A stretch of 16,116 nt of DNA from Bordetella sp. (lineage in GTDB: Bacteria > Pseudomonadota > Gammaproteobacteria > Burkholderiales > Burkholderiaceae_B). Positions 2,300 through 16,116 of this stretch are shown here, one piece after another. The stretch spans positions 1-16,116 of the forward strand of contig DAIDKG010000365.1 of assembly GCA_027450125.1 (NCBI GenBank), written 5' to 3'. The stretch's first letter is position 1; every line of letters starts with the position of its first letter. Below the pieces are notes generated by a model. The model was not told the origin of the DNA. It did no database searches and was given only the letters and a program-made list of their open reading frames with translations. The translations under genes were made by a program, and so were the position numbers.

Positions 2300-2320
2300 A
2301 AAGCCGGCTACTTCGCCGGC
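2300..2320 (-). terminator. Possible short terminator hairpin overlapping the LysR stop codon
   Basis: On the minus strand GCCGGC (2320-2315), six loop bases and GCCGGC (2308-2303) form a perfect 6-bp stem, followed by TTT (2302-2300). The right arm overlaps the TAG stop of the LysR gene (2310-2308). The U tract is only three bases, so this is a weak intrinsic terminator at best. Confidence 0.3.
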
Positions 2321-3264
2321 GCGCTGCCCGGCCACAGCGGCACGACCGCCTGCGCATTCTCCGGCGAGCGGGCCCGGAAGGCCTGGACGCTGCGGTGCAC
2401 GCAGTCCAGGAAGGTGCCGGCGTTGCTGCTGGGCGGCTGGCGCAACTGGTGTATGTAGCCGAACAGGATCCAGCGTTCGGGCGCCAGCGGGCGGATCACC
2501 AGGCCGTCCAGATCGATGGCCTGGGCGCACAAGCGGTCGAGAATGGCAATGCCGGCGCCGTCGCGGGCCAACTGGCAGGCCATCAGGGACGAGCGCGTCT
2601 CGATCGCATAGTCGGGCCTGACGCCGCCCGAGCGCAGAAAGTCGTCCACCTGTTGGCGCCAGGGCTGTCCGGACCACAAGCCCAGCAGCGGCTCGGACGC
2701 CAGGTCCGCGGCGGTCAGCGACGGCTTGTCCGCGAGCCGGTGCGTGGCGGGCAGCACGGCCTCCATCCGGACCTGGAACAACGGGTGGTTTTCGATTTCG
2801 ACGAAAGGATGGCTGACCGGCAGCGAGATGATGCCCAGGTCGTACAGCCGCGTGCCCATCTGGGCCTCGATCCCGAAGCGCGACTGTTCGTCGACCGACA
2901 CGCGGATGCCCGGGTTCTCGCGGCAGAACAGCGCGAGAGCGGGCGAGACGATGCCCCGGCCGATGCGCGAGGCCGTCACCAGCCGCAGCCGGCCCCGGGT
3001 TTCGGTGCGGATGGCGCTTGCGATGCGCGGAATTTCGTCGAATCCGGCCAGGATATGTTCGGCATCGCGATAGAACGCCTGCCCTTGAGCGGTCAGCTGC
3101 AGGCGCCGGCGCGTCCGGTGAAAGAGCTGCAGCTGGATTTCCGCCTCCAGCAGGCCGATCAGCCGGCTCGCGGCTGGCGGGCTGATGTTCATGGTCTCGG
3201 CCGCCGCCGCGAGCGAGCCTTGGCTGACCACCAGGTGAAAGAGGCGTAGCGCGCGGATGTTCAA
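2308..3264 (-). CDS. LysR-family transcriptional regulator, divergent from the ABC transporter operon
   Basis: A 318-residue LysR-type regulator if read from the TTG at 3264-3262, which gives the family-typical N terminus MNIRALRLFHLVVSQGSLAA. The winged-helix DNA-binding region is at about residues 3-62 (SLAAAAETMNISPPAASRLI covers the helix-turn-helix). The effector-binding domain, a periplasmic-binding-protein-like fold, fills about 90-290. The frame is open to another TTG at 3330, which would add 22 basic residues and lacks a ribosome binding site; there is no in-frame ATG upstream of the HTH. I prefer 3264 because family proteins normally start just before the HTH and because 3330 lies only nine bases from the putative operator. 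Divergent placement next to an amino-acid transporter operon implies it controls that operon, probably with the transported compound or a metabolite as co-inducer (inference). Confidence 0.88.
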   Translation of the reverse strand: MNIRALRLFHLVVSQGSLAAAAETMNISPPAASRLIGLLEAEIQLQLFHRTRRRLQLTAQGQAFYRDAEHILAGFDEIPRIASAIRTETRGRLRLVTASRIGRGIVSPALALFCRENPGIRVSVDEQSRFGIEAQMGTRLYDLGIISLPVSHPFVEIENHPLFQVRMEAVLPATHRLADKPSLTAADLASEPLLGLWSGQPWRQQVDDFLRSGGVRPDYAIETRSSLMACQLARDGAGIAILDRLCAQAIDLDGLVIRPLAPERWILFGYIHQLRQPPSSNAGTFLDCVHRSVQAFRARSPENAQAVVPLWPGSAPAK

Positions 3265-3338
3265 TATTTTTCTTCGCGTGGCAACTGATTGTCGGACATG
3301 AGGTTTTATCTCATTGTTCCGCTTTTTCAAACGATACG

Positions 3339-3363
3339 TTGATTAATTCACATTATTAAACAA
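3339..3363. promoter_or_regulatory. Inverted repeat, candidate LysR-regulator operator in the divergent spacer
   Basis: TTGATTAAT (3339-3347), seven spacer bases, then ATTAAACAA (3355-3363) form 9-bp inverted arms with a single mismatch. It is the only strong palindrome in the 183-base spacer between the regulator start (3264) and the binding-protein start (3448), and it lies in a local AT-rich patch where promoters are expected. The textbook T-N11-A pair of LysR sites is not at its symmetric position, so assignment to this regulator rests on location and symmetry. Confidence 0.5.
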
Positions 3364-3447
3364 CAACGCCACTTTAGACTGCGGCATCAAGGCTGGGCGG
3401 CGACATCGAGCCGTTCGGCGAAAGAACCATACCCAAAGGAGACAACG

Positions 3448-4263
3448 ATGATCCGGATGCGAATCTTGATGGCGGGCGCGCTTGCGCTGGCGGCTTGCGC
3501 GCAGGTGCCGGCGGCCATGGCGGGCAGCCTCGAACTGGTCACCCCCGGCGTGCTGAAAGTCGCCTACCGCACCGACGACAAGCCGGTTTCTTTCCTGCAG
3601 GACGGCAAGCCGACCGGCTTCATGGTGGAGCTGATGAACACGGTCGCCCAGCGCATGGGACTGAAGGTGACTTATATCTCGACGACGTTCGCCGCCATGC
3701 TGCCCGCGGTCAGGAATCACCAATACGACACGGCGGCCTTCGGCGTGCTGGTCACGCCCCAGCGCAAGACGGTCGTGAACTTCACCACCCCGGTCGGCTA
3801 CGGCCAGGCGCAACTGGTCAGCCGCAAGAAGGCTGCGCTGGCCACGCTGCAGGACGCCCAGGGCAAGACCGTGGCGATCACCACCGGCAGCGCGCTGATC
3901 CCCCTGCTGCGCAAAATGGCGCCCAAGGTGACGATCAAGGAGTTTCCCAACGTCGCATCGAGCACGAACGCGTTGCTGGCCGGGCAGGTGGACGGCCTTT
4001 TCACCGGCAACGCCACGGCGGGGCGCATCGCCGTGCAGCACCCTGAACTGGTCGCCACGCAAACCGTGGAGAGCGACGCCAACGCGCTGCCGGTCGCCAA
4101 GGATCATCCGGCGCTGCTGGCCGCGATGAACAAGGCGCTCGCGGCGGCGATGGCCGACGGCACCTACGGCAAGCTGTTCGCCAAGTGGAACCCCAAGGGC
4201 ATGCGCATTCCGCAGCGCATGTATGCCGACTATCCGGGCATGCCGCGGCAGGCCGCGCAATAA
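3448..4263 (+). CDS. Amino-acid ABC transporter, periplasmic substrate-binding protein (SBP_bac_3 family)
   Basis: A 271-residue family-3 solute-binding protein that captures a polar amino acid or similar ligand and delivers it to the permease encoded next. The ATG at 3448 follows AAAGGAG with good spacing. The N terminus is an export signal: basic MIRMR, a short hydrophobic core, then either a signal-peptidase I site at AMA-G (residues 24-27) or a lipobox LAAC with Cys17. The mature part opens with the family-typical LKVAYRTDDKPVSFLQDGKP and GFMVELM, and contains AAFGVLVTPQRKTVVNFTTP, the usual hinge and ligand-loop region. This is the first gene of the plus-strand operon, 21 bases before the permease. 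The substrate cannot be read from the sequence. Confidence 0.9.
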   Translation: MIRMRILMAGALALAACAQVPAAMAGSLELVTPGVLKVAYRTDDKPVSFLQDGKPTGFMVELMNTVAQRMGLKVTYISTTFAAMLPAVRNHQYDTAAFGVLVTPQRKTVVNFTTPVGYGQAQLVSRKKAALATLQDAQGKTVAITTGSALIPLLRKMAPKVTIKEFPNVASSTNALLAGQVDGLFTGNATAGRIAVQHPELVATQTVESDANALPVAKDHPALLAAMNKALAAAMADGTYGKLFAKWNPKGMRIPQRMYADYPGMPRQAAQ

Positions 4264-4284
4264 CACACACCGCGAAGAGCCGCC

Positions 4285-5016
4285 ATGTATCACGGTCTGC
4301 AGCAGATCCTGTCCACGTTCTTCGATCCGACGCTGATCCTGCAGGCGATGCCGCAGCTGCTTCGGGTCGGCCTGCCCAACACGCTGCTGCTGGCGGTGTG
4401 CGCCACGGCGATCGGCATCGCGCTTGCGCTATTGGTGGCGGTCGGGCTGATGTCGGAGCGGCGCTGGGTGCGCCTGCCGTGCCGCGCCTACGTCGACATC
4501 CTGCGCGGACTGCCGCACATCCTGACCGTCTACCTGATCGGGCAGGGCCTGCCGCTGGCGGGCCTGAGCCTGTTCGGGGACAACACCTACGGCTATGCAG
4601 CGCTGGCGATCGGGCTCATCGAGAGCGCCTATTTCGCCGAAATCTTCCGGGCCGGCTTCCAGGGAGTCGAGCGCGGCCAGGTCGAGGCCGCGCGCAGCAC
4701 AGGCATGACCAGGTTCCAGACCATGCGCCACATCATCATTCCCCAGGGCGCGCGGCGCGTCCTGCCGCCGCTGACCGGCCAGTTCATCCTGGTCATCAAG
4801 GCCACCTCGCTGGTGTTCCTGCTGGGCCTGACGGCGTCGCAGCGCGAGATGTTCGCGCTGGCCCAGGACGGCGCGATCAACAACGCCAATCTGTCGCCGC
4901 TGACCGCCGCGGGCCTGATCTATCTCGCCCTGACGATTCCGACGACCTATGTGATCAACACCTGGGACCGCCGGCTTCGCGGCGGTCGCGCAACCCGAGC
5001 GATAGGATCCGAATGA
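4285..5016 (+). CDS. Amino-acid ABC transporter permease (HisM/GlnP type)
   Basis: A 243-residue inner-membrane permease of the polar-amino-acid (HisM/GlnP/ArtQ) family. The Pro-Asn-Thr pattern near residues 30-33 begins the conserved permease domain, with membrane segments at about 32-55, 68-90, 103-120, 163-182 and 205-225. The cytoplasmic EAA loop that docks on the ATPase is clear at about 134-155 (EAARSTGMTRFQ followed by IIPQG). Only one permease gene is present, so a homodimer is the simplest channel. A modest GAAGAG lies before the ATG. The last four bases overlap the ATPase start (ATGA at 5013-5016), which indicates translational coupling. Confidence 0.92.
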   Translation: MYHGLQQILSTFFDPTLILQAMPQLLRVGLPNTLLLAVCATAIGIALALLVAVGLMSERRWVRLPCRAYVDILRGLPHILTVYLIGQGLPLAGLSLFGDNTYGYAALAIGLIESAYFAEIFRAGFQGVERGQVEAARSTGMTRFQTMRHIIIPQGARRVLPPLTGQFILVIKATSLVFLLGLTASQREMFALAQDGAINNANLSPLTAAGLIYLALTIPTTYVINTWDRRLRGGRATRAIGSE

Positions 5017-5756
5017 ATCCGCAATCCGGCACCCGCGTGCGCTTCGAACGCGTGAGCAAATCGTACGGCAACGTCGCCGTGCTGCACGAGATCGATCTGG
5101 AAGCGCCGGGCGGGACGACGACCTGCATCGTCGGCCCGTCGGGCTCGGGCAAGTCCACGCTGCTGCGCTGCGCCAACCTGATGGAGCGTCCGCAGTCGGG
5201 GCGCATCCTGCTGGGCGATCTCGACATCACCGCGCCCGGCGTGGACATCGACAAGGTGCGCGCGCGGGTGGGCATGGTGTTCCAGCACTTTCATCTGTAT
5301 GCGCATCTGGACGTGCTGGCCAACGTCAGCCTGGCCCTGCGCAAGGTGCGGGGCATGAATCGGGACGAGGCCGAGGCGATCGCGCGCGACAGGCTGCAGG
5401 CGGTCGGCCTGAACGGATTCGAGGCGCGCCGGCCGCAGGACCTGTCGGGCGGCCAGCAGCAGCGCGTGGCCATTGCGCGCTCGCTTGCCATGGAACCCGA
5501 GGTCATGCTCTTTGACGAGGCCACCTCCGCCCTCGATCCGGAGCTGGTCAAGGGGGTGCTCGCCGTCATGCGCGATCTTGCGCAGGCCGGCATGACCATG
5601 ATCGTGGTGACGCACGAAATGCGCTTCGCGCGCGAGGTCGCCGGCCAGGTTGTGTTCGTCGACGGCGGGCGCATCATCGAGCAGGGACCGCCCGATGAAT
5701 TCTTCGACCGGCCGCGCCACCCGCGCTTGCGCCATTTTCTGGAGCAGGTCCTCTGA
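5013..5756 (+). CDS. Amino-acid ABC transporter ATP-binding protein (HisP/GlnQ type)
   Basis: A 247-residue ATPase that powers the adjacent permease on the cytoplasmic face. All nucleotide-binding motifs are intact: Walker A GPSGSGKST (41-49), Q-loop Gln91 in VFQHFHLYAH, ABC signature LSGGQQQ (144-150), Walker B VMLFDE (164-169), D-loop ALD (173-175) and H-loop His201 in VVTHE. Length and motifs match the HisP/GlnQ subfamily. The frame is open far upstream to 4185, but those codons overlap the permease gene in another frame. The ATG at 5013, with AGGA just upstream and a 4-base overlap with the permease stop, gives the standard family N terminus. Confidence 0.95.
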   Translation: MNPQSGTRVRFERVSKSYGNVAVLHEIDLEAPGGTTTCIVGPSGSGKSTLLRCANLMERPQSGRILLGDLDITAPGVDIDKVRARVGMVFQHFHLYAHLDVLANVSLALRKVRGMNRDEAEAIARDRLQAVGLNGFEARRPQDLSGGQQQRVAIARSLAMEPEVMLFDEATSALDPELVKGVLAVMRDLAQAGMTMIVVTHEMRFAREVAGQVVFVDGGRIIEQGPPDEFFDRPRHPRLRHFLEQVL

Positions 5757-5770
5757 CCTGTGACGCACCC

Positions 5771-7126
5771 ATGACTGATATGCTCGCCGCGCGGCCATCG
5801 ACCGCCGAAATCCAAAACCTGTTTGCCCAGCGCAGCCATTGGCAATCCTGGCTCGATGTCGAAGCGGCACTCGCCGCGACCCAGGCCGAGATGGGCATGA
5901 TTCCAGCTGCCGCGGCGCTGGAAATCGGCCGCAAGGCCAATCTGGACCACGTCGACGCCACGGCCCTGGCGGCCGACATTGCCCGCACCCGGGCTCCCAT
6001 CGTGTCGCTCGTGCGGGCGCTGGCGCGAGTTTGCGACGACGATGCCGGCGACTATGTGCACTGGGGCGCCACCACGCAAAACGTAATGCTGACTGCCCGG
6101 ACCCTGCTGATGCGCCGGGTGCACGGCGCGTTCATGGCCAGGCTGGGCGACGTGCTGTCCAGGCTGGCGGACCTGGCCGATGCGGGCGCAGACATGCTCA
6201 CGGCCGGGCGCACCAATTTCCGCCAGGGTCTGCCGATCACGTTCGGCTTCAAGGCGGCTGCATGGATCGAGGAGTTCCTGCGGCACCGCCAGCGTTTCGA
6301 AGGCGCCGAACCGCGCGTCTTCGCCTCGCTGTGGGGCGGTGCGCTGGGCGCCATGCACACCTACGGCGAGCAGGGTGCCGAGCTGAACCGCCGGCTGTCG
6401 CAGCGACTCGGCCTGACGCCGCTGGCCGTGCCGTCGCGGGCGGGGACTGACTACATCGTGGAGTATTTCCTGCTGCTGGCCTTGTTCAGCGCGAGTTGCT
6501 CCAAGGTGGCCCGGGATCTGTACGGCCTGATGGCCGACGAGATCGGCGAAGTCTACGAGCATCAGGGCAAGGAGGTCGTCGGCTCGAGCACCATGCCCAA
6601 CAAGGTCAATCCCAAAGTCGTCGTGGTGGTGATCTCGCTTGCGGCCCGGCTGCGCGCCACGACGCCGCTGGCGCTGGAGGCGATGCAGTCCACGCATGAA
6701 GGCGATGCCGCCAACAACCAGATGCTTTACGCGCTCATCGACCAGGCCTGTCCCCTCGCGTACGAGCTGGTCTGCGCGATGGACGAGCTGCTGGCCTGCC
6801 TGAAGCTGGCACCGGAGAACATGCGCCGCAACGTGGCGCTTTCCGGGCAGACCATGGCCGCGGAGAACGCGATGATGGTCCTGGCCCCCGCCTTCGGACG
6901 CGCGCAGGCCTATGAGCGGGTCAAGCAGGCGATCGCACAGGCCGGACAGCGCGGCGGCCAGCTGGCCGACCTGCTGCTCGAGGATGACTCGGTGCGCCAG
7001 GCCGTCGACGAGGCCGCGCTGCGGGCGGCGCTGGACCCGGCCGCCTACACAGGCAGCAGCGCGCAGATGGCGAAAACCATGGCGGCCAGCGCGCGCAGCG
7101 CCGCGGCGGCGCTGACCGGCGGCTAA
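5771..7126 (+). CDS. Fumarase/adenylosuccinate-lyase superfamily enzyme, PcaB-like (substrate unknown)
   Basis: A 451-residue cytoplasmic enzyme, the length of 3-carboxymuconate cycloisomerase (PcaB) and adenylosuccinate lyase. The superfamily loop GSSTMPNKVNP (271-281) carries the catalytic serine region, and HWGATTQN (97-104) matches the usual H-x-G-x-T-S/T-x-D/N segment. The second conserved block reads RTNFRQGLPITFG (147-159): adenylosuccinate lyases normally have RTH here and PcaB enzymes RTW, so Asn149 is unusual. It starts 14 bases after the ATPase stop without a clear Shine-Dalgarno, and it is the last gene of the transporter operon. The context suggests it cleaves the imported compound, for example an N-substituted aspartate or carboxylated amino acid, releasing fumarate or an analogue; this is inference. 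True PcaB is less likely because no protocatechuate genes are nearby. Confidence 0.85.
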   Translation: MTDMLAARPSTAEIQNLFAQRSHWQSWLDVEAALAATQAEMGMIPAAAALEIGRKANLDHVDATALAADIARTRAPIVSLVRALARVCDDDAGDYVHWGATTQNVMLTARTLLMRRVHGAFMARLGDVLSRLADLADAGADMLTAGRTNFRQGLPITFGFKAAAWIEEFLRHRQRFEGAEPRVFASLWGGALGAMHTYGEQGAELNRRLSQRLGLTPLAVPSRAGTDYIVEYFLLLALFSASCSKVARDLYGLMADEIGEVYEHQGKEVVGSSTMPNKVNPKVVVVVISLAARLRATTPLALEAMQSTHEGDAANNQMLYALIDQACPLAYELVCAMDELLACLKLAPENMRRNVALSGQTMAAENAMMVLAPAFGRAQAYERVKQAIAQAGQRGGQLADLLLEDDSVRQAVDEAALRAALDPAAYTGSSAQMAKTMAASARSAAAALTGG

Positions 7127-9636: not shown

Positions 9637-9987
9637 TCAGGCCAGGCGCAGGAAATAGAACGTCTGGACGCCGTCGATCACGCCCTGGCCAGCGTAACTG
9701 ACGAGCCGGCCTTGTTCGTCCGTGCGCACAAGTTTGAAAATAACCGCCGGCTTCCCGTCGTCGGACATGAAGCAGGGAAACCCGTCGACCATCTTCCAGC
9801 GGCTCGCCGCGGCCGTTCCCGAATTCTCCAGCAGCTCCTGCCCGGCCAGGACCACCGAGGGCGAGATCAGGCGTCCGTTGAGGTCGAAAAATTTCCAGGA
9901 ACTCCCCAGCAACTGCTCGGCCGTCAGAGCGGGACCCTCGGCGTAGCTGGCCAGGATGGCCTTGAGTTCTGTTTGATCCTTATCCAT
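9637..9987 (-). CDS. Possible internal start: 116-residue C-terminal module of the TPR glycosyltransferase
   Basis: Inside the glycosyltransferase gene, in the same frame, GAGGAG stands six bases before an ATG at 9987-9985. Translation from there gives a 116-residue protein, MDKDQTELKAIL onward, ending at the shared stop. The part just before it (residues about 420-437 of the long protein, including NAAARTFSHEERH) looks like translated spacer rather than domain. The module contains SSWKFFDLNGRLISPSVVL and RWKMVDGFPCFM; these W-x-x-x-d-G style segments resemble small beta-rich domains seen in other polysaccharide-enzyme genes, but I cannot name the family. It could be an independent product, a fusion of two former genes, or simply a domain. 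Confidence 0.35.
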   Translation of the reverse strand: MDKDQTELKAILASYAEGPALTAEQLLGSSWKFFDLNGRLISPSVVLAGQELLENSGTAAASRWKMVDGFPCFMSDDGKPAVIFKLVRTDEQGRLVSYAGQGVIDGVQTFYFLRLA

Positions 9988-11298
9988 GTGCCGCTCCTCG
10001 TGAGAAAAAGTTCGTGCCGCCGCGTTCGACAACACGTGTATCAATGCTTTTGCGACATCGGCGACGACCGGCTCCCACTGCCCCATGGCGGGTTGGTGGA
10101 AAAGACGCGCCGTCGGATACCACGGACTGTCGGTCCGATTCAGCAGCCAGCGCCAGCAGCCATCGTAGCGCGACAGTATCCAGACCGGCCGGCCCAGCGC
10201 GCCCGCCAGATGCGCCACCGCCGTGTCGACTGTGATCACCAAGTCCAGCCCGGCGACCAGCGCTGCGGTGTCGGCGAAATCGCGTATTTCGCCGGTCCAA
10301 TCGACGAGGGGAAATCCCTCGCGCAACGCCTGAGCGGCCTCGGCCGATTCGCCGATCTGCAGACTGATGAATTGAATGCCATCGACGGCTGTGAGCGGCG
10401 AAAGCTGGGCAAGCACGAGGCTGCGGCGCGCGTCGAACGGCCTGCCCCTTGCGCCGGCCCACACCAGCCCCACCTTGAACCCGGGCCTGGCCGCAAGCCG
10501 CTGCGACCAGGCCGCCGCCGCGGCCGGGTCGGCATGCAGATACGGCGTTCGGGCGGGTATCGTCTCCAGGGTCGTGCCGAACAGCTCCGGCAATAACCGC
10601 ATCAACACCTGAAAGTCGAACTCGGCGGTGTCGAGCATGCGATCGACCACCTCGGCTCCCGGCAGCGATGCGCGCAGCAGCCTGAGCAGGGGCGACGGGA
10701 CAAGCACGGTGACGTGCGCACCGCGTGCAAGCGCCATCGGAACATAGCGCGCGAACTGCAGGATGTCGCCGTAGCCATCGTCGGCGAAAATCACCAGCCG
10801 CTTGCCGGCAAGCGGCTCGCCCTCCCAGTCTGGACAGGTGATCGCGGCCAATTCTTCGCGTTTCGCGTACTGCCGAAAATATCCGCGCAAGGCTTCGAAG
10901 CCGCGCGGCAGGTCGCCGCCGCGCAAGAGAGCCATGGCACGGCCGAGGTGAATCGGGGGGGATACCGGCTTGAGCGCCAGAGCGCGGTCGTAACTGGCCA
11001 CGGCCTCATCGAGCCGGCGCAGCTCATATAAAGCCACGCCGCGATTGCGAAACGCCTCGGCATCTGGCTTGAGCGCCAGCGCGCCGTCGTAGCTGACTAC
11101 CGACTCTTCCAGCCGGCCCAATTTGTATAGGACCGTACCGCGGTAATAATGCGCTTCGAACAAATGAGGCTCGATAGCGATCGCCTGGTCGAAGCTGGCC
11201 AGAGCCTCGTCCAGACGCTGCTGTCCAGTCAGTCGAACGCCTTGATTGACGAGCGCCACGGCCTCCTCGATCCGGCCCTGGCTCGTCGCAGCGGGCAT
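9637..11298 (-). CDS. TPR-containing glycosyltransferase (GT9-like) with extra C-terminal domain
   Basis: A 553-residue protein. Residues 13-110 hold about three tetratricopeptide repeats (ALASFDQAIAIEP, SVVSYDGALALKP and AVASYDRALALKP mark the repeat ends). Residues 155-425 form a GT-B-type transferase half related to ADP-heptose transferases, with KVGLVWAG (275-282), DLVITVDTAVAHLAGALG (352-369) and CWRWLLNRTDSPWYPTARLF (381-400). Such TPR glycosyltransferases are typically cytoplasmic and modify proteins or envelope glycans; donor and acceptor are unknown here. The ATG at 11298 has GAGGG eight bases upstream and is preferred over the TTG at 11313. It starts 30 bases after the CaiB gene stop, so the two are probably one operon. 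The family normally ends near residue 430; the last 116 residues are an addition with its own start signal (see 9637-9987). Confidence 0.88.
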   Translation of the reverse strand: MPAATSQGRIEEAVALVNQGVRLTGQQRLDEALASFDQAIAIEPHLFEAHYYRGTVLYKLGRLEESVVSYDGALALKPDAEAFRNRGVALYELRRLDEAVASYDRALALKPVSPPIHLGRAMALLRGGDLPRGFEALRGYFRQYAKREELAAITCPDWEGEPLAGKRLVIFADDGYGDILQFARYVPMALARGAHVTVLVPSPLLRLLRASLPGAEVVDRMLDTAEFDFQVLMRLLPELFGTTLETIPARTPYLHADPAAAAAWSQRLAARPGFKVGLVWAGARGRPFDARRSLVLAQLSPLTAVDGIQFISLQIGESAEAAQALREGFPLVDWTGEIRDFADTAALVAGLDLVITVDTAVAHLAGALGRPVWILSRYDGCWRWLLNRTDSPWYPTARLFHQPAMGQWEPVVADVAKALIHVLSNAAARTFSHEERHMDKDQTELKAILASYAEGPALTAEQLLGSSWKFFDLNGRLISPSVVLAGQELLENSGTAAASRWKMVDGFPCFMSDDGKPAVIFKLVRTDEQGRLVSYAGQGVIDGVQTFYFLRLA

Positions 11299-11328
11299 GT
11301 CAACGTCCCTCAACGAAAACGCCTCGAG

Positions 11329-12522
11329 TCATGCAATCACTCCCAGCTCGCGCAGCTTGGCGCGCTGCTCGGCGTCGAACCCCGCCGCTTCCAATACGGC
11401 ATCGGTGTGCTCGCCCAACGTGGGCGCCCGCCGCGCGATGGCGCCCGGATTCTGCGACAGCAGGGGAAAGATCGCCGGCTGCTCGACCTCGATGCCGCTG
11501 GCCGCCCTGACCGAAGCGATGGCGCCGCGGGCGCGGTAGTGCGGATCGGCGGCGATGTCGGCCACGGTGTAGATGCGGCCCGACGGCACGCCGGCATCGC
11601 GCATGGCCTCGAGCACGTCGGTGATCGTGCGCTGCGCCGTCCATGCGCCGATGGCGGCGTCCAGCTCGGCAGCGCGCCGGGCCCGCCCGTCGTTGCGCGC
11701 CAGGTCCGGATCGCTCCCCAGGTCGGAGCGTCCGATCCTGTCCATCAGGCGGCCGAAGATGCCGTCGCCGTTGCCGGCGATGAGCACGTAGCCGTCCCGG
11801 CACAGGTAGGCATTGGACGGCGCGATGCCCGGCAGGGCCGCACCCGCCGGCTCGCGCACGGCGCCGAACACCGAGTACTCGGGCAGCAGGCTCTCGGTCA
11901 GGTTGAAAATGCTCTCGTAAAGCGCGGCGTCGATCATCTGCCCCTGTCCGCCGCGTGCATCGCGCTGGTACAAAGCCAGCAGCACGCCCAAGGCGCCGTG
12001 CAGGCCGGCCACGGTATCGCCGATGGAGATGCCAGCGCGAACCGGCGCCCTGCCCGGTTCGCCGTTGAGGTAGCGCAGGCCCGCCATGGCCTCGCCGATG
12101 GCGGCAAAGCCGGGTTCGCCCGACTTGGGGCCCGACTGGCCGTAGCCCGAAATGCGCAGCATGATCAGGCGCGGGTTGGCCGCGTGCAGCGACTCCCAGG
12201 ACAGGCCCCACTTTTCCATCGTGCCGGGGCGGAAGTTTTCGATCAGCACGTCGGCCTCGGCCGCCAGGGCGCGCACCACGGCCTGCCCCTGCGGCTGTCG
12301 CAGATCCACGCATACCGACTGCTTGCTGCGCGACTGGGCCTCCCACCACACCGACGTGCCTTCGTGCAGCATGCGCCATTTGCGCAGGGGGTCGCCCTGG
12401 CCGGGCGGCTCGATCTTGACGACCTGGGCGCCGAAGTCGGCCAGGGTCTTGGCTGCGAAAGGGGCCGCGATCAGTTGCCCCAGCTCCAGCACACGGATGC
12501 CGGACAGTATCTGCGCTGCCAT
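11329..12522 (-). CDS. CaiB/BaiF family (type III) CoA transferase
   Basis: A 397-residue cytoplasmic enzyme of the formyl-CoA:oxalate / carnitine CoA-transferase family, which moves CoA between carboxylic acids through an enzyme-aspartyl anhydride. The start LSGIRVLELGQLIAAPFAAK, the IENFRPGTMEKWGL block (94-107) and SGYGQSGP (125-132) are family hallmarks. The presumed catalytic aspartate is Asp169 in GISIGDTVAGLHGALG, the same number as in formyl-CoA transferase. Length is standard. A strong GGGGGAG ribosome binding site precedes the ATG at 12522. It lies 60 bases after the TPR/ATP-grasp gene and 30 bases before the TPR glycosyltransferase gene, so it may belong to the same transcript. Substrates cannot be deduced; this family is abundant and diverse in Bordetella-like genomes. 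Confidence 0.93.
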   Translation of the reverse strand: MAAQILSGIRVLELGQLIAAPFAAKTLADFGAQVVKIEPPGQGDPLRKWRMLHEGTSVWWEAQSRSKQSVCVDLRQPQGQAVVRALAAEADVLIENFRPGTMEKWGLSWESLHAANPRLIMLRISGYGQSGPKSGEPGFAAIGEAMAGLRYLNGEPGRAPVRAGISIGDTVAGLHGALGVLLALYQRDARGGQGQMIDAALYESIFNLTESLLPEYSVFGAVREPAGAALPGIAPSNAYLCRDGYVLIAGNGDGIFGRLMDRIGRSDLGSDPDLARNDGRARRAAELDAAIGAWTAQRTITDVLEAMRDAGVPSGRIYTVADIAADPHYRARGAIASVRAASGIEVEQPAIFPLLSQNPGAIARRAPTLGEHTDAVLEAAGFDAEQRAKLRELGVIA

Positions 12523-12582
12523 ATTTCTCCCCCTCAGGCTCTCGTCTTCGCGCGCAACCCGCAGTCTACACGCCCCCGCCGG

Positions 12583-14085
12583 TCAGGCGGCTCGCCCGCG
12601 GGCCGCGGCGATGCGGCGCGCCAGCATGGCGTCGAAGGCCTCGCAGATCGTCCGGACATACGGGTTCTTGTAGTCATAAACGTCCTGCTCCTTCTCCGGA
12701 TGCGTCAGCATGGTGGCATTGGCCTCGAACACCAGCACCCTGCCGTCGGGCAGGACGGAAAAATCGACGCCGCCGTAGTCCAGGTCCAGGGTGCGGCCTA
12801 TGGCCTCGATCGCGGCCATGGCCTTCTCTCCCACGGCCTGCCGCGGGTCGGACAGGAACGCCTCTTCCTCGACGCGCTTCCAGCCGTCGTACTGCATGCC
12901 CGCGGTGTCGTGATGCACGAGCCAGTGGCCGCCGATGGCCAGATGGTAGGCATAGGGCCGGCGGTCGACGAAGACGACGCGGTACTTGCGAAAGCCCCCG
13001 TCGGCCGAGCTGAAATCGACGTAGTCGGTCAGGTAGTAATGGGGCGAGGGCCAGGGCTTGAATGCCGCGGCATCGGCCTTGGACTCAAGCTTGACCAGGT
13101 GATCCCCGCCGTGCGACCCGACGGGCCGCAGCAGGATGGGAAAACGGCTTTCGGGCAAGCCGTCCAGCACGCCGCGCAAGCGGCCGGACTCCACGCGCAG
13201 GGTGCGCGGCACGACGACATTCTCGATGCTGCCGAGCAGGCCGGGGATCATGTGGCGGGCCGTGCACGCGACGGCCTGCGCCGGGTTGAGCAGCGGCTTG
13301 TCGCAGGTCTGCAGAAAGCGGGCCATGGGTCCGAGGGCGGGATCGAGCACGTCCGGATCGCCGATCGCGTTGAAGACCAGGTCGTAGTCGGGCAGGCGCG
13401 CCAGCGCCTCGGGGCTGGCATATTCGATCACGCAGACGATGCGCGTGACCGACTTCTGCGGCAGGAGGTATTCGGTGGGAATATTGCCCAGGCCGGCGCC
13501 CCACAGGACCAGCACGGTCATGCGCGGATCCTGGGCATGGTCCACGTAGATCGCCTTGCGGCTGTAGACCGCGTCGCGGTGTTCTTTCGCCTTTTGCAGC
13601 TCGCCGCGCGACGCGCAGATGGCCGCCAGGTTCATGTGGACCTCGATCTGTTCGGGATCGACCTCCAGGGCGGCCTGATACCAGATCAGCGCTTCGTCGT
13701 AGTCCTTCAGGTCGAAGTAGATCGTGCCTACGTTGAGCAGGGCCTGGGCGTAGGCCGGCTGGCACCTGAGCGCTGCGGCATAGCAGTCCAGGGCCTGCTG
13801 CGGCCTGGCCATGCGCTTGTAGGCCACGCCCATGTTGTTGTGGGCCTGGGCGTGATCGGGCTGCAGCGCCACGGCTTGCCGGAAGCTGGCCACCGCGTCG
13901 TCCAGCTCGCCCAGCGCCATCAGGGCCAGGCCCAGATTGTTGTGGCTGCCGGCGTGATCGGGGTGCTCGTGCAGCAGGCGCCGATAGGCTTGCGCGGCCT
14001 CGCGATACCGCCCGCTTTGCTGCAGCGCGCAGGCGCCCTGGAACTCGTGTTCGAGCTGGCCGCGATCCATGTCGTCAGGCGGCAT
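12583..14085 (-). CDS. TPR protein with C-terminal ATP-grasp-like domain
   Basis: A 500-residue protein. Residues 11-180 carry about five tetratricopeptide repeats (for example SHNNLGLALMALGELDDAVA and AHNNMGVAYKRM). From about 188 a Rossmann-like segment, VLVLWGAGLGNIPTEYLL, leads into an ATP-grasp-like half: FPILLRPVGSHGG (315-327), FRKYRVVFVDRRPYAYHLAI (365-384) and PDGRVLVFEANATM (446-459), where Glu454 and Asn456 would be metal ligands. ATP-grasp enzymes join a carboxylate to an amine or similar nucleophile through an acyl phosphate; the substrates here are unknown. The ATG at 14085 overlaps the aminotransferase stop by 11 bases; another ATG at 14070 is possible. Neither has a strong Shine-Dalgarno, consistent with translational coupling. 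The C-terminal half is clearly paralogous to the gene at 15193-16116. Confidence 0.82.
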   Translation of the reverse strand: MPPDDMDRGQLEHEFQGACALQQSGRYREAAQAYRRLLHEHPDHAGSHNNLGLALMALGELDDAVASFRQAVALQPDHAQAHNNMGVAYKRMARPQQALDCYAAALRCQPAYAQALLNVGTIYFDLKDYDEALIWYQAALEVDPEQIEVHMNLAAICASRGELQKAKEHRDAVYSRKAIYVDHAQDPRMTVLVLWGAGLGNIPTEYLLPQKSVTRIVCVIEYASPEALARLPDYDLVFNAIGDPDVLDPALGPMARFLQTCDKPLLNPAQAVACTARHMIPGLLGSIENVVVPRTLRVESGRLRGVLDGLPESRFPILLRPVGSHGGDHLVKLESKADAAAFKPWPSPHYYLTDYVDFSSADGGFRKYRVVFVDRRPYAYHLAIGGHWLVHHDTAGMQYDGWKRVEEEAFLSDPRQAVGEKAMAAIEAIGRTLDLDYGGVDFSVLPDGRVLVFEANATMLTHPEKEQDVYDYKNPYVRTICEAFDAMLARRIAAARGRAA

Positions 14086-15190
14086 GCCGCTTGCGGTAGT
14101 CGTGCATGAACTGCACGAGGGCCTCGACGGCCTCGATCGTCACGCCGTTGTAGAGCGAGGCTCGCATGCCGCCGACCGAGCGATGGCCGTTCAGTCCGGA
14201 AAATCCTGCCTGCGAAGAGGCTTGCAGGAACTGCTTTTCCGCTTCGGGCGTCGCCATGTTGAAGACGACGTTCATGATGGAACGATGGGCCACATCGGCG
14301 CGGCCGCGATAAAAGCCGTCGCTGCCGTCGACCTGCGCATAGAGCAGTTCGGCCTTGCGGCGGTTGACCGCATCCATCTTGTCCAGGCCGCCCACGTCCT
14401 CGCGCAGCCAGCGCGTAGCCAGCATGACGGCGTAGATGGCGAAGACCGGCGGCGTGTTGTAGATGGAATGCGCCGCGGCATGGGGGCGGTAGTCCATGAA
14501 CTCGGGCAAGCGGTCGGCAGGCACCTTGTTCATCAATTCGTCGCGCACCACCACCACGGTCACACCCGCAGGGCCGAGGTTCTTCTGCGCGTGCGCATAG
14601 ATGAGATCGTAGCGATGCGCCTCGCAGGGCCGGGAGAGGAAATCCGAGGACATGTCGCACAGGCGCGGCACATCGTCGCGGCCCATCGTTTCCTGGAACT
14701 GGATGCCGTCCACGGTCTCGTTGGAGATGTAGTGGAAGTACGGCGCCTCGGGCGAAAGCGACAGGTCCCGCGCCCGGGGCAGCGACTTGAAGCCGATGTC
14801 CTTGCCGCTCCAGGCCACGCCGATGCGGTGGCGGCTGGCGGCCGCGGCGAGCGCCTTGCCGCTCCAGTAGCCGGTGTGCAGGTATTCGGGCGCAGGGCCG
14901 TCCGGACGGGAAAATGCCATGGGGAACGTGAAGAACTGCTGCGTCGCGCCGCCCTGCAGGAACAGCACCTGGTATCCGTCGGGCAGGCCCAGCAGCGTAC
15001 GCACGTTGCGCTCGGCCTCGGCCACGACCGCCGCGAACCAGTCTGAGCGATGGCTGATGCCCAGCACCGACATGCCCACTTCCGGCACGCACAGCATGGA
15101 CTCGTGCAGTTGCTGAAGAATCGTTTGCGGCAAGGCTCCCGGCCCGCCGGAGAAATTGCGCGCATTGCGCAGCCGAACGGCGTCCTGCAT
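14075..15190 (-). CDS. Phosphoserine aminotransferase-type PLP enzyme (SerC family)
   Basis: A 371-residue class-V aminotransferase with the full SerC pattern: NFSGGPGALP (12-21), GISHRSDWF (44-52, with the His and Arg that contact the phosphate), VLFLQGGATQQF (75-86), ISNETVDGIQF (155-165), and AHAQKNLGPAGV (199-210) whose Lys203 should bind pyridoxal phosphate. The C-terminal GHRSVGGMRASLYN is also intact. SerC converts 3-phosphohydroxypyruvate and glutamate to phosphoserine. All key residues are present, so the enzyme is probably active on that or a close analogue. The ATG at 15190 has AGGAG eight bases upstream; a TTG at 15196 is less likely. It starts two bases after the stop of the upstream ATP-grasp gene. 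No serA, pheA or gyrA neighbour is seen, so this may be a second, pathway-specific copy. Confidence 0.9.
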   Translation of the reverse strand: MQDAVRLRNARNFSGGPGALPQTILQQLHESMLCVPEVGMSVLGISHRSDWFAAVVAEAERNVRTLLGLPDGYQVLFLQGGATQQFFTFPMAFSRPDGPAPEYLHTGYWSGKALAAAASRHRIGVAWSGKDIGFKSLPRARDLSLSPEAPYFHYISNETVDGIQFQETMGRDDVPRLCDMSSDFLSRPCEAHRYDLIYAHAQKNLGPAGVTVVVVRDELMNKVPADRLPEFMDYRPHAAAHSIYNTPPVFAIYAVMLATRWLREDVGGLDKMDAVNRRKAELLYAQVDGSDGFYRGRADVAHRSIMNVVFNMATPEAEKQFLQASSQAGFSGLNGHRSVGGMRASLYNGVTIEAVEALVQFMHDYRKRHAA

Positions 15191-15192
15191 GG

Positions 15193-16116
15193 TCAAGCTC
15201 CTGTGGCTCGCGCGGCGCTGTCGGCGAGCATGGCCTGGAAGGCGGCGAATACCTTGCGCATCTGCGATTTTTTATAAGGGTAGAGATCTTCGGGGTCCAT
15301 GTCGTGCACGATGCCGCAGGTGTCCGCCTCGAACACCAGCAGTTCGCCGTCCGGCGTTTCGGCGCAATCGATGATCAGGTAATCCAGCCCCACCCGTTTA
15401 TGGAAGGTGCGGAAAGCCTGCGCATGGCGCGCGCCGAACTCCTGGTCGAAACTGCGCATGGCCTCGCCTTCTTCGGCGCGGTTGGCGGCGTTTTCCTGCA
15501 TGTCCGCGTTCAGGTAGTGCACCATCCAGCGCGGCGAAATGCCCACATGCGCCAGATAGGCCCTGCCCTGCATCAGCACGACGCGATACTTGCGGTAAAG
15601 CCCGTCGGGCCCGCGGTAATCGACGAACTGCGACACGAAGAAATCGTCGCCTTGCGTCGCGGCGAGATACGCCGCAAGCCCGGCCGGCGCGTCGATTTTC
15701 TCCAGGTTCTCGCCGGCATTGGAGTCGACGGGCCGCACCAGAATGGGAAACTGCGCATCCGGCAGAACATCCTGCAGGTTCGCCGCGCCGCGCGCCAGTT
15801 CGTCCAGCGCCAGTCGGTCGGTGCGCGCCAGCGCCGGGGACACTATGCCGGGCGCGCCGCGCAAGGCCGCGTGCAGCCCGTCGCGCGAGGTCCTGAGTAC
15901 TCTGCCGGGAAGATTGAGCACCGGCGTATGCCACCTGTCCAGGGGCTCGGCCAGCCCTTGCAGCAGCTTGCGATTGCCCAGGTTCTCGCCCACGGCGACC
16001 ATGGCCAGGTCGTGCGGCGGCAGGGACTTGGGCACCGGAATGCCCGGTCCCAGGTACAACAGGTACAGGTCGATGCTGGAGTCGGCGACCAGGAATTCCA
16101 GCGGGGTATTGGCCAT
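15193..16116 (-). CDS. ATP-grasp-like protein, probably cut at its N terminus by the window edge
   Basis: 307 residues are visible, with an ATG exactly at the last bases of the window. The protein parallels the C-terminal half of the 12583-14085 product: ANTPLEFLV (2-10) aligns with GNIPTEYLL, FPILVRPVDSNAGENLEKI (123-141) with FPILLRPVGSHGG, LYRKYRVVLMQGRAYLAHVG (173-192) with the FRKYRVV region, and PDGELLVFEADTC (255-267) with PDGRVLVFEANAT. Glu263 is kept; the second metal ligand is Asp265 rather than Asn. Because the aligned relative has more sequence before this point (a VLVLWGAGLG strand and TPRs), the ATG at 16116 may be internal. Function is presumably ATP-dependent ligation of a carboxylate, substrate unknown. 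It is tightly coupled to the downstream aminotransferase gene. Confidence 0.75.
   Translation of the reverse strand: MANTPLEFLVADSSIDLYLLYLGPGIPVPKSLPPHDLAMVAVGENLGNRKLLQGLAEPLDRWHTPVLNLPGRVLRTSRDGLHAALRGAPGIVSPALARTDRLALDELARGAANLQDVLPDAQFPILVRPVDSNAGENLEKIDAPAGLAAYLAATQGDDFFVSQFVDYRGPDGLYRKYRVVLMQGRAYLAHVGISPRWMVHYLNADMQENAANRAEEGEAMRSFDQEFGARHAQAFRTFHKRVGLDYLIIDCAETPDGELLVFEADTCGIVHDMDPEDLYPYKKSQMRKVFAAFQAMLADSAARATGA

What the first reader, a model, noticed from the sequence alone, without database searches (positions are those of the whole stretch)
9637..16116. Candidate uncharacterised biosynthetic locus: two ATP-grasp-like enzymes, a SerC-type aminotransferase and a TPR glycosyltransferase
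Seen: five same-strand genes; the first three have gaps of +2 and -11 bases, the next two gaps of 60 and 30 bases. Two are paralogous ATP-grasp-like proteins flanking a complete SerC-family enzyme, and two different products carry TPR arrays. Known: ATP-grasp enzymes make amide-type bonds, SerC makes an amino donor or phosphoserine, and TPR/GT-B enzymes glycosylate proteins or glycans. Inference: together they could build and attach an amino-acid-containing modification or a small peptide-like product. I know of no described pathway with this set, but I cannot search.
Basis: partly seen in the sequence, partly recalled or inferred. Interest (0 to 1): 0.7.

Follow-up and report, generated by a model that had tools for sequence, protein, structure and literature searches.

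The report
Transaminase-ligase module that tags proteins
A bacterial operon places a second copy of the amino-acid-making enzyme SerC directly beside an ATP-grasp ligase, an arrangement seen in 21 of the 23 genomes found to carry this SerC type, and the pair is predicted to make an amino-acid building block and join it to a protein, likely flagellin, which would be an unfamiliar kind of protein modification.

Summary
In detail: five minus-strand genes, two paralogous ATP-grasp-type proteins around a SerC. Corrections: the first gene is cut by the contig end; another contig continues it and adds an upstream PLP decarboxylase. Genome G153 has all six genes in this order.

The SerC/ATP-grasp pairing is real. 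This SerC type is in 23 genomes (6 of 268 family, 19 of 399 order, two shared). In 21 an ATP-grasp gene of this family lies directly upstream; beside 7 housekeeping-type serC copies there is none. SerC sits beside three kinds of ligase. The ligase model (pLDDT 95) best matches RimK and LysX/ArgX. The 80 nearest relatives pair instead with the decarboxylase (72) and an uncharacterised PLP protein (61); flagellar genes lie within 10 kb in 24.

I infer that PLP enzymes make an amine or amino acid that the ligase amide-links to a protein, probably flagellin. Reaction, nucleophile and target are untested; the window is not beside flagellar genes. The CoA-transferase is probably a bystander.

The parts
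15193..16116 (-). ATP-grasp ligase of the RimK/LysX fold class (GRASP); 3' three quarters of the gene, truncated at the contig end; the rest (about 100 aa, TPR-like helices) is on contig C165
14075..15196 (-). SerC-family transaminase, second copy (SerC2); TTG at 15196 overlaps the upstream stop by 4 bp, ATG at 15190 is the alternative; PLP lysine K205 at 14582-14584
   Evidence: NF009112 573.9 bits; PDB phosphoserine aminotransferases E 2.5e-98; another SerC, 41% identical, on contig C405; ATP-grasp neighbour in 21 of 23 genomes
12583..14085 (-). TPR array (about residues 17-165) fused to a second ATP-grasp domain (about residues 190-490); TPRgrasp
   Evidence: TPR Pfam matches; ATP-grasp part 33% identical to GRASP with D-E-N pattern; 83% identical copy in G153
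11329..12522 (-). class-III CoA-transferase; in the run of genes in three genus members but not a conserved partner
   Evidence: PF02515 E 6.5e-123; present in G153 and G158, 0 of 80 wider loci
9637..11313 (-). TPR plus GT9-type glycosyltransferase with an extra C-terminal region
   Evidence: PF01075 and TPR matches; 74% identical copy in G153
9637..9987 (-). C-terminal 116 aa of the previous ORF, possibly a separate small protein: in-frame ATG preceded by GAGGAG; no Pfam match
   Evidence: among the loci held only the G153 copy matches besides the window itself

Best explanation
The locus encodes a SerC-family transaminase whose gene overlaps that of an ATP-grasp protein with a predicted RimK/LysX-type fold, and the two likely act in sequence: SerC would make an amino-acid nucleophile (probably O-phospho-L-serine or a close analogue), and the ligase would use ATP to activate a carboxyl group on a protein and join the amino acid to it as an amide. 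The TPR-like N-termini would recruit the protein substrate, as the TPR domain of Caulobacter FlmG recruits flagellin. In this genus the upstream PLP decarboxylase would supply an amine as a second nucleophile, or would trim the amino acid, and the TPR-ATP-grasp paralogue would make a second linkage or act on a second target. The most likely target is flagellin or another flagellar surface protein, because the wider family (decarboxylase, ligase, FAM1) lies next to flagellar genes far more often than genome sizes predict. Shown by calls: gene order, adjacency, paralogy, conserved residues, SerC beside three kinds of ligase, and the flagellar neighbourhoods in other lineages. Predicted: the ATP-grasp fold. 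Inferred: the reaction, the nucleophile, the protein target, and any role of the glycosyltransferase.
Confidence: 0.4

Rival explanations
1. A soluble small-molecule pathway: PLP enzymes make amines and amino acids that the two ATP-grasp ligases condense into a dipeptide-like or amide natural product, with the TPRs serving only protein-protein assembly.
Against: No NRPS, PKS or carrier protein among the 11 window proteins scanned, and no LysW-like C-terminal motif in five loci checked. The best fold matches are ligases that act on proteins (substrates recalled). The family keeps an N-terminal helical region that the catalytic fold does not need.
Confidence: 0.24
2. Glycan decoration: the ligase amidates the carboxyl group of a uronic or nonulosonic acid in a surface or flagellar glycan with the amino acid or amine, and the TPR glycosyltransferase transfers the finished sugar.
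For: A TPR-GT9 gene follows in the operon. A Maf-like (MptE-like) gene lies near the module in Methylobacter (L093). Shewanella SfmE is an ATP-grasp needed for full flagellin modification, where the base is likely a nonulosonic acid (PMC3765264, passages).
Against: The glycosyltransferase accompanies the module in few loci (5 of 80), and no nonulosonic acid synthase is among the 11 window proteins scanned.
Confidence: 0.2
3. SerC2 is merely a spare phosphoserine or vitamin B6 transaminase and the gene proximity reflects a shared promoter only.
For: SerC2 passes the curated phosphoserine transaminase model and keeps the active-site residues.
Against: Five of six family genomes with SerC2 also have another SerC, and the sixth is 77% complete. 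Adjacency to an ATP-grasp in 21 of 23 genomes, with three kinds of ligase, would be unexplained.
Confidence: 0.08
4. Only GRASP, SerC and the decarboxylase belong together; TPRgrasp, CoA-transferase and glycosyltransferase are unrelated neighbours.
For: In the 80 nearest relatives these genes do not accompany the module; TPRgrasp and the TPR glycosyltransferase have paralogues elsewhere in the genome.
Against: Order is kept in G153 and, up to the contig end, in G158. A TPRgrasp-type protein is itself the gene upstream of SerC in three genomes, L197-L199.
Confidence: 0.3

Closest known systems
RimK and LysX/ArgX (ATP-grasp ligases that add amino acids to ribosomal protein S6 or to the carrier LysW; functions recalled)
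   Different: No curated RimK-family match for the window proteins; structural-alignment identity 8-18%; TPR-like N-terminus; third ligand position is D rather than N in GRASP; operon partners are PLP enzymes
SfmE of Shewanella oneidensis (ATP-grasp in flagellin modification)
   Same: An ATP-grasp protein of similar length (412 aa) whose loss shifts flagellin mass (PMC3765264, passages)
   Different: Described there as carrying an ATP-grasp_4 domain; named operon partners include a PseI-like protein, a reductase and a methyltransferase, not SerC or a decarboxylase; relation to GRASP not tested
FlmG of Caulobacter crescentus (TPR plus GT-B flagellin glycosyltransferase)
   Same: TPR domain joined to a catalytic domain; cytoplasmic, TPR binds flagellin (PMC7591256, passages)
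   Different: FlmG transfers a sugar; the window glycosyltransferase is GT9-like and not beside flagellin
Housekeeping SerC (phosphoserine transaminase)
   Same: Same family, PLP lysine and substrate-binding residues
   Different: SerC2 is 37-42% identical to the seven other copies and differs from them at 8 positions fixed in both groups of the 21 and 7 rows compared; it stands beside an ATP-grasp in 21 of 23 genomes
Butirosin BtrJ/BtrK pair (recalled, not searched)
   Same: An ATP-grasp ligase working with a PLP decarboxylase
   Different: Acts on a carrier protein inside an antibiotic cluster; no carrier protein among the 11 window proteins scanned

Membership tests
ATP-grasp superfamily | ATP-grasp fold | tested here: met
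   Predicted structure of the G153 copy (91% identical), pLDDT 95.3, 270 residues aligned to RimK at 3.6 A
ATP-grasp superfamily | Conserved nucleotide- and metal-binding residues | tested here: met
   R226, K274, R276, D348, E361 invariant in 58 GRASP and 25 TPRgrasp rows; third ligand D in 56 of 58 GRASP, N in 25 of 25 TPRgrasp (roles recalled)
RimK family (curated sequence models) | Match above the curated cut-off | tested here: not met
   No match for the window proteins; the relative L043 reaches only 19.9 bits against 143.4 for TIGR00768
RimK/LysX type function | Ligation of an amino acid to a protein carboxyl group | not testable with these tools
   Needs enzymology
SerC phosphoserine transaminase | Curated family score | tested here: met
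   NF009112, 573.9 bits against 563
SerC phosphoserine transaminase | PLP lysine and phosphate/carboxylate-binding residues | tested here: met
   K205, H49, R50, H338, R345 in 21 of 21 SerC2 and 7 of 7 other rows (roles recalled)
SerC phosphoserine transaminase | Role as the sole housekeeping enzyme | tested here: not met
   Another SerC on C405 of the same genome
Flagellin modification locus | Located with flagellar genes | tested here: inconclusive
   24 of 80 related loci, but not the window, C165, G153 or G158, and 1 of 20 SerC-carrying loci
Flagellin modification locus | Flagellin carries a modification that depends on the genes | not testable with these tools
   Needs mass spectrometry
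NRPS/PKS or carrier-protein natural product cluster | Assembly-line or carrier-protein genes nearby | tested here: not met
   None among the 11 window proteins scanned; no LysW-like motif in five loci
Graspetide (RiPP) cluster | Precursor peptide with a core motif beside the ATP-grasp | not tested
   No systematic small-ORF search was made; the 116-aa region at 9637-9987 is the only small candidate noted
GT9 glycosyltransferase | PF01075 above cut-off | tested here: met
   28.2 bits against 22

The most novel reading that the evidence does not exclude
A new class of bacterial post-translational modification: self-contained modules in which a PLP enzyme (SerC2, FAM1 or a group-II decarboxylase) makes a phospho-amino acid or amine, and a TPR-guided RimK-like ATP-grasp ligase couples it through an amide bond to flagellin or another surface protein, giving filaments a charged, non-sugar coat.
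Probability: 0.27. Interest if true: 0.85.

Novelty: new variant of a known kind. Interest (0 to 1): 0.62.

Why it matters
An ATP-grasp family with thousands of members (5794 matches at E <= 0.001 among the 7996 candidates scored) and a PLP-type family without a Pfam or NCBIfam match in the members scanned (2708 matches among 7995 scored) form a conserved, unexplained module in Proteobacteria and some other phyla. The SerC-ATP-grasp pairing gives a concrete biochemical handle: one enzyme of known chemistry next to a ligase with a predictable fold. If the target is flagellin, it would add amino-acid or amine ligation to a field that, as far as I recall, is described mainly in terms of glycans and methylation, and it makes testable predictions in culturable environmental bacteria.

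Tried and rejected
Sequence search for a solved relative of the truncated ligase: one chance MHC match, E 1. Profile search of the ligase alignment against solved structures: the 60 of 120 rows shown are TPR or designed-TPR chains, no ATP-grasp. FAM1 against solved structures: none by single sequence; by profile a cysteine desulfurase at E 0.4 and a copper ATPase at 0.85; the model (pLDDT 90.7) then matched PLP fold-type I enzymes by Foldseek. Considered and dropped: a methanofuran-type MfnA/MfnD pathway (the decarboxylase scores 211.7 bits with the diaminobutyrate decarboxylase model and 78.2 with MfnA, both below cut-off); a LysW-type carrier (motif absent in five loci); the CoA-transferase as a pathway member (0 of 80; a 32% relative 1 kb or more past the ligase in L128 looks incidental). 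A first gene caller by ORF length failed on antisense ORFs and was replaced by one weighted by conservation. Promoter and terminator scans were uninformative. PHROGs gave only TPR-region matches for TPRgrasp and none for GRASP or SerC.

Tree labels: six database proteins without genomic context had been labelled as lacking SerC.

Literature: I found no description of this gene set in the papers held; searches were 0 papers; 1, listing only; 5; PMC3765264 read in passages, the others listing only; 0; 1, listing only; 0; 3, listing only. (1) led to PMC7591256, read in passages; (1) listing only.
Full report
WHAT IS THERE. The five reported ORFs exist on the minus strand at the stated coordinates. 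In transcription order they are: an ATP-grasp-like protein (15193-16116, called GRASP here), a SerC-family transaminase (14075-15196, SerC2), a protein with several TPRs and a second ATP-grasp-like domain (12583-14085, TPRgrasp), a class-III CoA-transferase (11329-12522) and a TPR glycosyltransferase with a GT9 match (9637-11313). GRASP and TPRgrasp are paralogues at 33% identity. The window is a whole contig (C365) of a 600-contig assembly of 3.0 Mb, 73% complete.

The GRASP ORF begins exactly at the contig end. Contig C165 ends with 348 bp that match the window with 3 mismatches, and it carries the missing N-terminus and, upstream, a PLP decarboxylase of Pfam PF00282. The join is supported by genome G153 of the same genus, which has decarboxylase, GRASP, SerC2, TPRgrasp, CoA-transferase, glycosyltransferase and the next gene, DUF4337, in the same order on one contig. 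Protein identities are 92, 91, 92, 82, 94, 74 and 91%, and Ka/Ks is 0.09-0.25, as under purifying selection. A third genome, G158, has the run from the end of GRASP to the CoA-transferase, where its contig ends. Twelve of 15 genus genomes lack GRASP, SerC2 and TPRgrasp.

THE SERC-LIGASE PAIR. The window SerC at E <= 1e-100 was found in 6 of 268 family genomes and 19 of 399 order genomes; two genomes are in both samples, so there are 23. In 21 of 23 an ATP-grasp gene of this family lies immediately upstream on the same strand. The exceptions, L200 and L201, are the two weakest matches (47% identity); wider stretches around them show no such gene either. In 21 junctions examined the gene distance is between -8 and +20 bp, 15 of them a 4-bp overlap; where several start codons fit, the script took the one nearest to such an overlap, so 15 is an upper count. 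A second, housekeeping-type SerC was found in 7 of 8 genomes searched; none of those seven copies has an ATP-grasp within the roughly 1.5 kb of flank held. Five of the six family genomes with SerC2 also have the other copy; the sixth, G158, is 77% complete. On a tree of 47 ligase domains the SerC-linked rows need 4 changes, at least 3 forced by well supported branches, against 13.9 in shuffles when rows without known context are left out. These may be gains or losses. What is plain is that SerC2 sits beside three kinds of ligase: GRASP in this genus, a separate GRASP-B clade in many others, and TPRgrasp-type proteins in L197-L199.

THE WIDER FAMILY. 211 stretches of named genomes encode relatives of GRASP; the best 80 were kept, so these are the nearest ones. 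In them the decarboxylase is present in 72, upstream on the same strand within 1.5 kb in 68, and a third protein, FAM1, in 61, downstream on the same strand within 1 kb in 58; both stand in place in 55. SerC is in 0 of 80, CoA-transferase in 0, glycosyltransferase in 5. In L049, L051, L090 and L110 decarboxylase and ligase form one uninterrupted ORF. FAM1 has no Pfam match (1 protein scanned) and no NCBIfam match (3 scanned); its model (pLDDT 90.7) matches PLP fold-type I enzymes. So SerC2 and FAM1 look like alternative PLP partners of the same ligase. Against a uniform picture: G005 and G047, the nearest relatives outside the genus, have decarboxylase and ligase but neither SerC2 nor FAM1 in the stretches read; G065 and G033 have the ligase without any of these partners, and G041 has only a distant CoA-transferase match.

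FLAGELLAR CONTEXT. Matches to FlaG, FliD, FliS, flagellin, FliT, FliF-I, FlgF-H or FlhB-like proteins lie within 10 kb of the ligase in 24 of 80 loci. One representative each of FlaG, FliS, FliD, FliF, FlgFG and flagellin was confirmed by Pfam; a FliT-like one had no Pfam match, and the FliT, FliG, FliH, FliI, FlgH and FlhB labels are recalled from sequence. Examples: L043 (decarboxylase, ligase, FAM1, one other gene, then flagellin, FlaG, FliD, FliS, FliT), L080 (flagellin cluster upstream on the same strand), L058 (FliF-I before, flagellin cluster after). As a control, 33 of these records on contigs of 100 kb or more were searched for FliS: 29 genomes had it, and 8 of those have it within 10 kb of the ligase, against 0.15 expected from genome sizes. 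This is not corrected for kinship. Against it: the window, C165, G153 and G158 loci have no match to any of these queries, and of 20 SerC-carrying loci (18 with the pair) only L205, where the pair follows fliR, has flagellar neighbours. All 15 family genomes with the ligase have flagellin, against 190 of 268 overall (hypergeometric P 0.005); ten of the 33 further genomes were examined, including the four without FliS, and all ten have it.

MECHANISM. SerC2 keeps the PLP lysine and the substrate-binding residues, so it probably still makes a phospho-amino acid such as O-phosphoserine. The ligase would then activate a carboxyl group and attach that amino acid, or an amine made by the decarboxylase, as an amide. 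TPRs would bind the protein substrate, as shown for FlmG and flagellin (PMC7591256, passages). An ATP-grasp protein, SfmE, is already known to affect flagellin modification in Shewanella; its mutant still swims but spreads less (PMC3765264, passages). Reaction, nucleophile and target here are inferences. The decarboxylase substrate is open; its best match among solved structures is 4obu (E 3.2e-63), titled a Ruminococcus gnavus tryptophan decarboxylase.

VERDICT.

Noticed in passing
9637-9987: The last 116 aa of the glycosyltransferase ORF start with an ATG preceded by GAGGAG and may be a separate small protein read in the same frame; among the loci held only the G153 copy matches (65%), and Pfam has no match.
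   Followed up: partly
L123 (contig C87) 2-4000: A 1333-aa ORF holds three TPR glycosyltransferase modules in tandem, 58-63% identical to the window glycosyltransferase, and a partial fourth; another partial copy is on C303 (L124).
   Followed up: no
window 15769-16116 and L120 3120-3467: Two contigs of one assembly overlap by 348 bp with 3 mismatches, which suggests strain mixture in the assembly.
   Followed up: partly
L043:10918-12555 and 60 other loci: FAM1, a predicted PLP fold-type I family with no Pfam or NCBIfam match in the members scanned, sometimes fused to a methyltransferase domain (P0148).
   Followed up: partly
L163 3362-5747; L054, L118 and other Methylobacter loci: A cytochrome c assembly gene (Pfam only for L163) and an ffh-like gene (name recalled) lie upstream of the decarboxylase-ligase pair both in G153 and in Methylobacter, in a different order.
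   Followed up: no
L121, L122, L164-L167: Further TPRgrasp paralogues occur in this genus: E below 1e-80 at four other places in G153, three of them with a stop inside the matched stretch.
   Followed up: no
L107: A record titled Klebsiella pneumoniae MAG carries a ligase relative; the label is probably wrong.
   Followed up: no
2308-7126: LysR regulator, amino-acid ABC transporter genes and a fumarase/adenylosuccinate-lyase superfamily enzyme below the curated cut-offs form a separate likely catabolic cluster, also partly present in G153.
   Followed up: no
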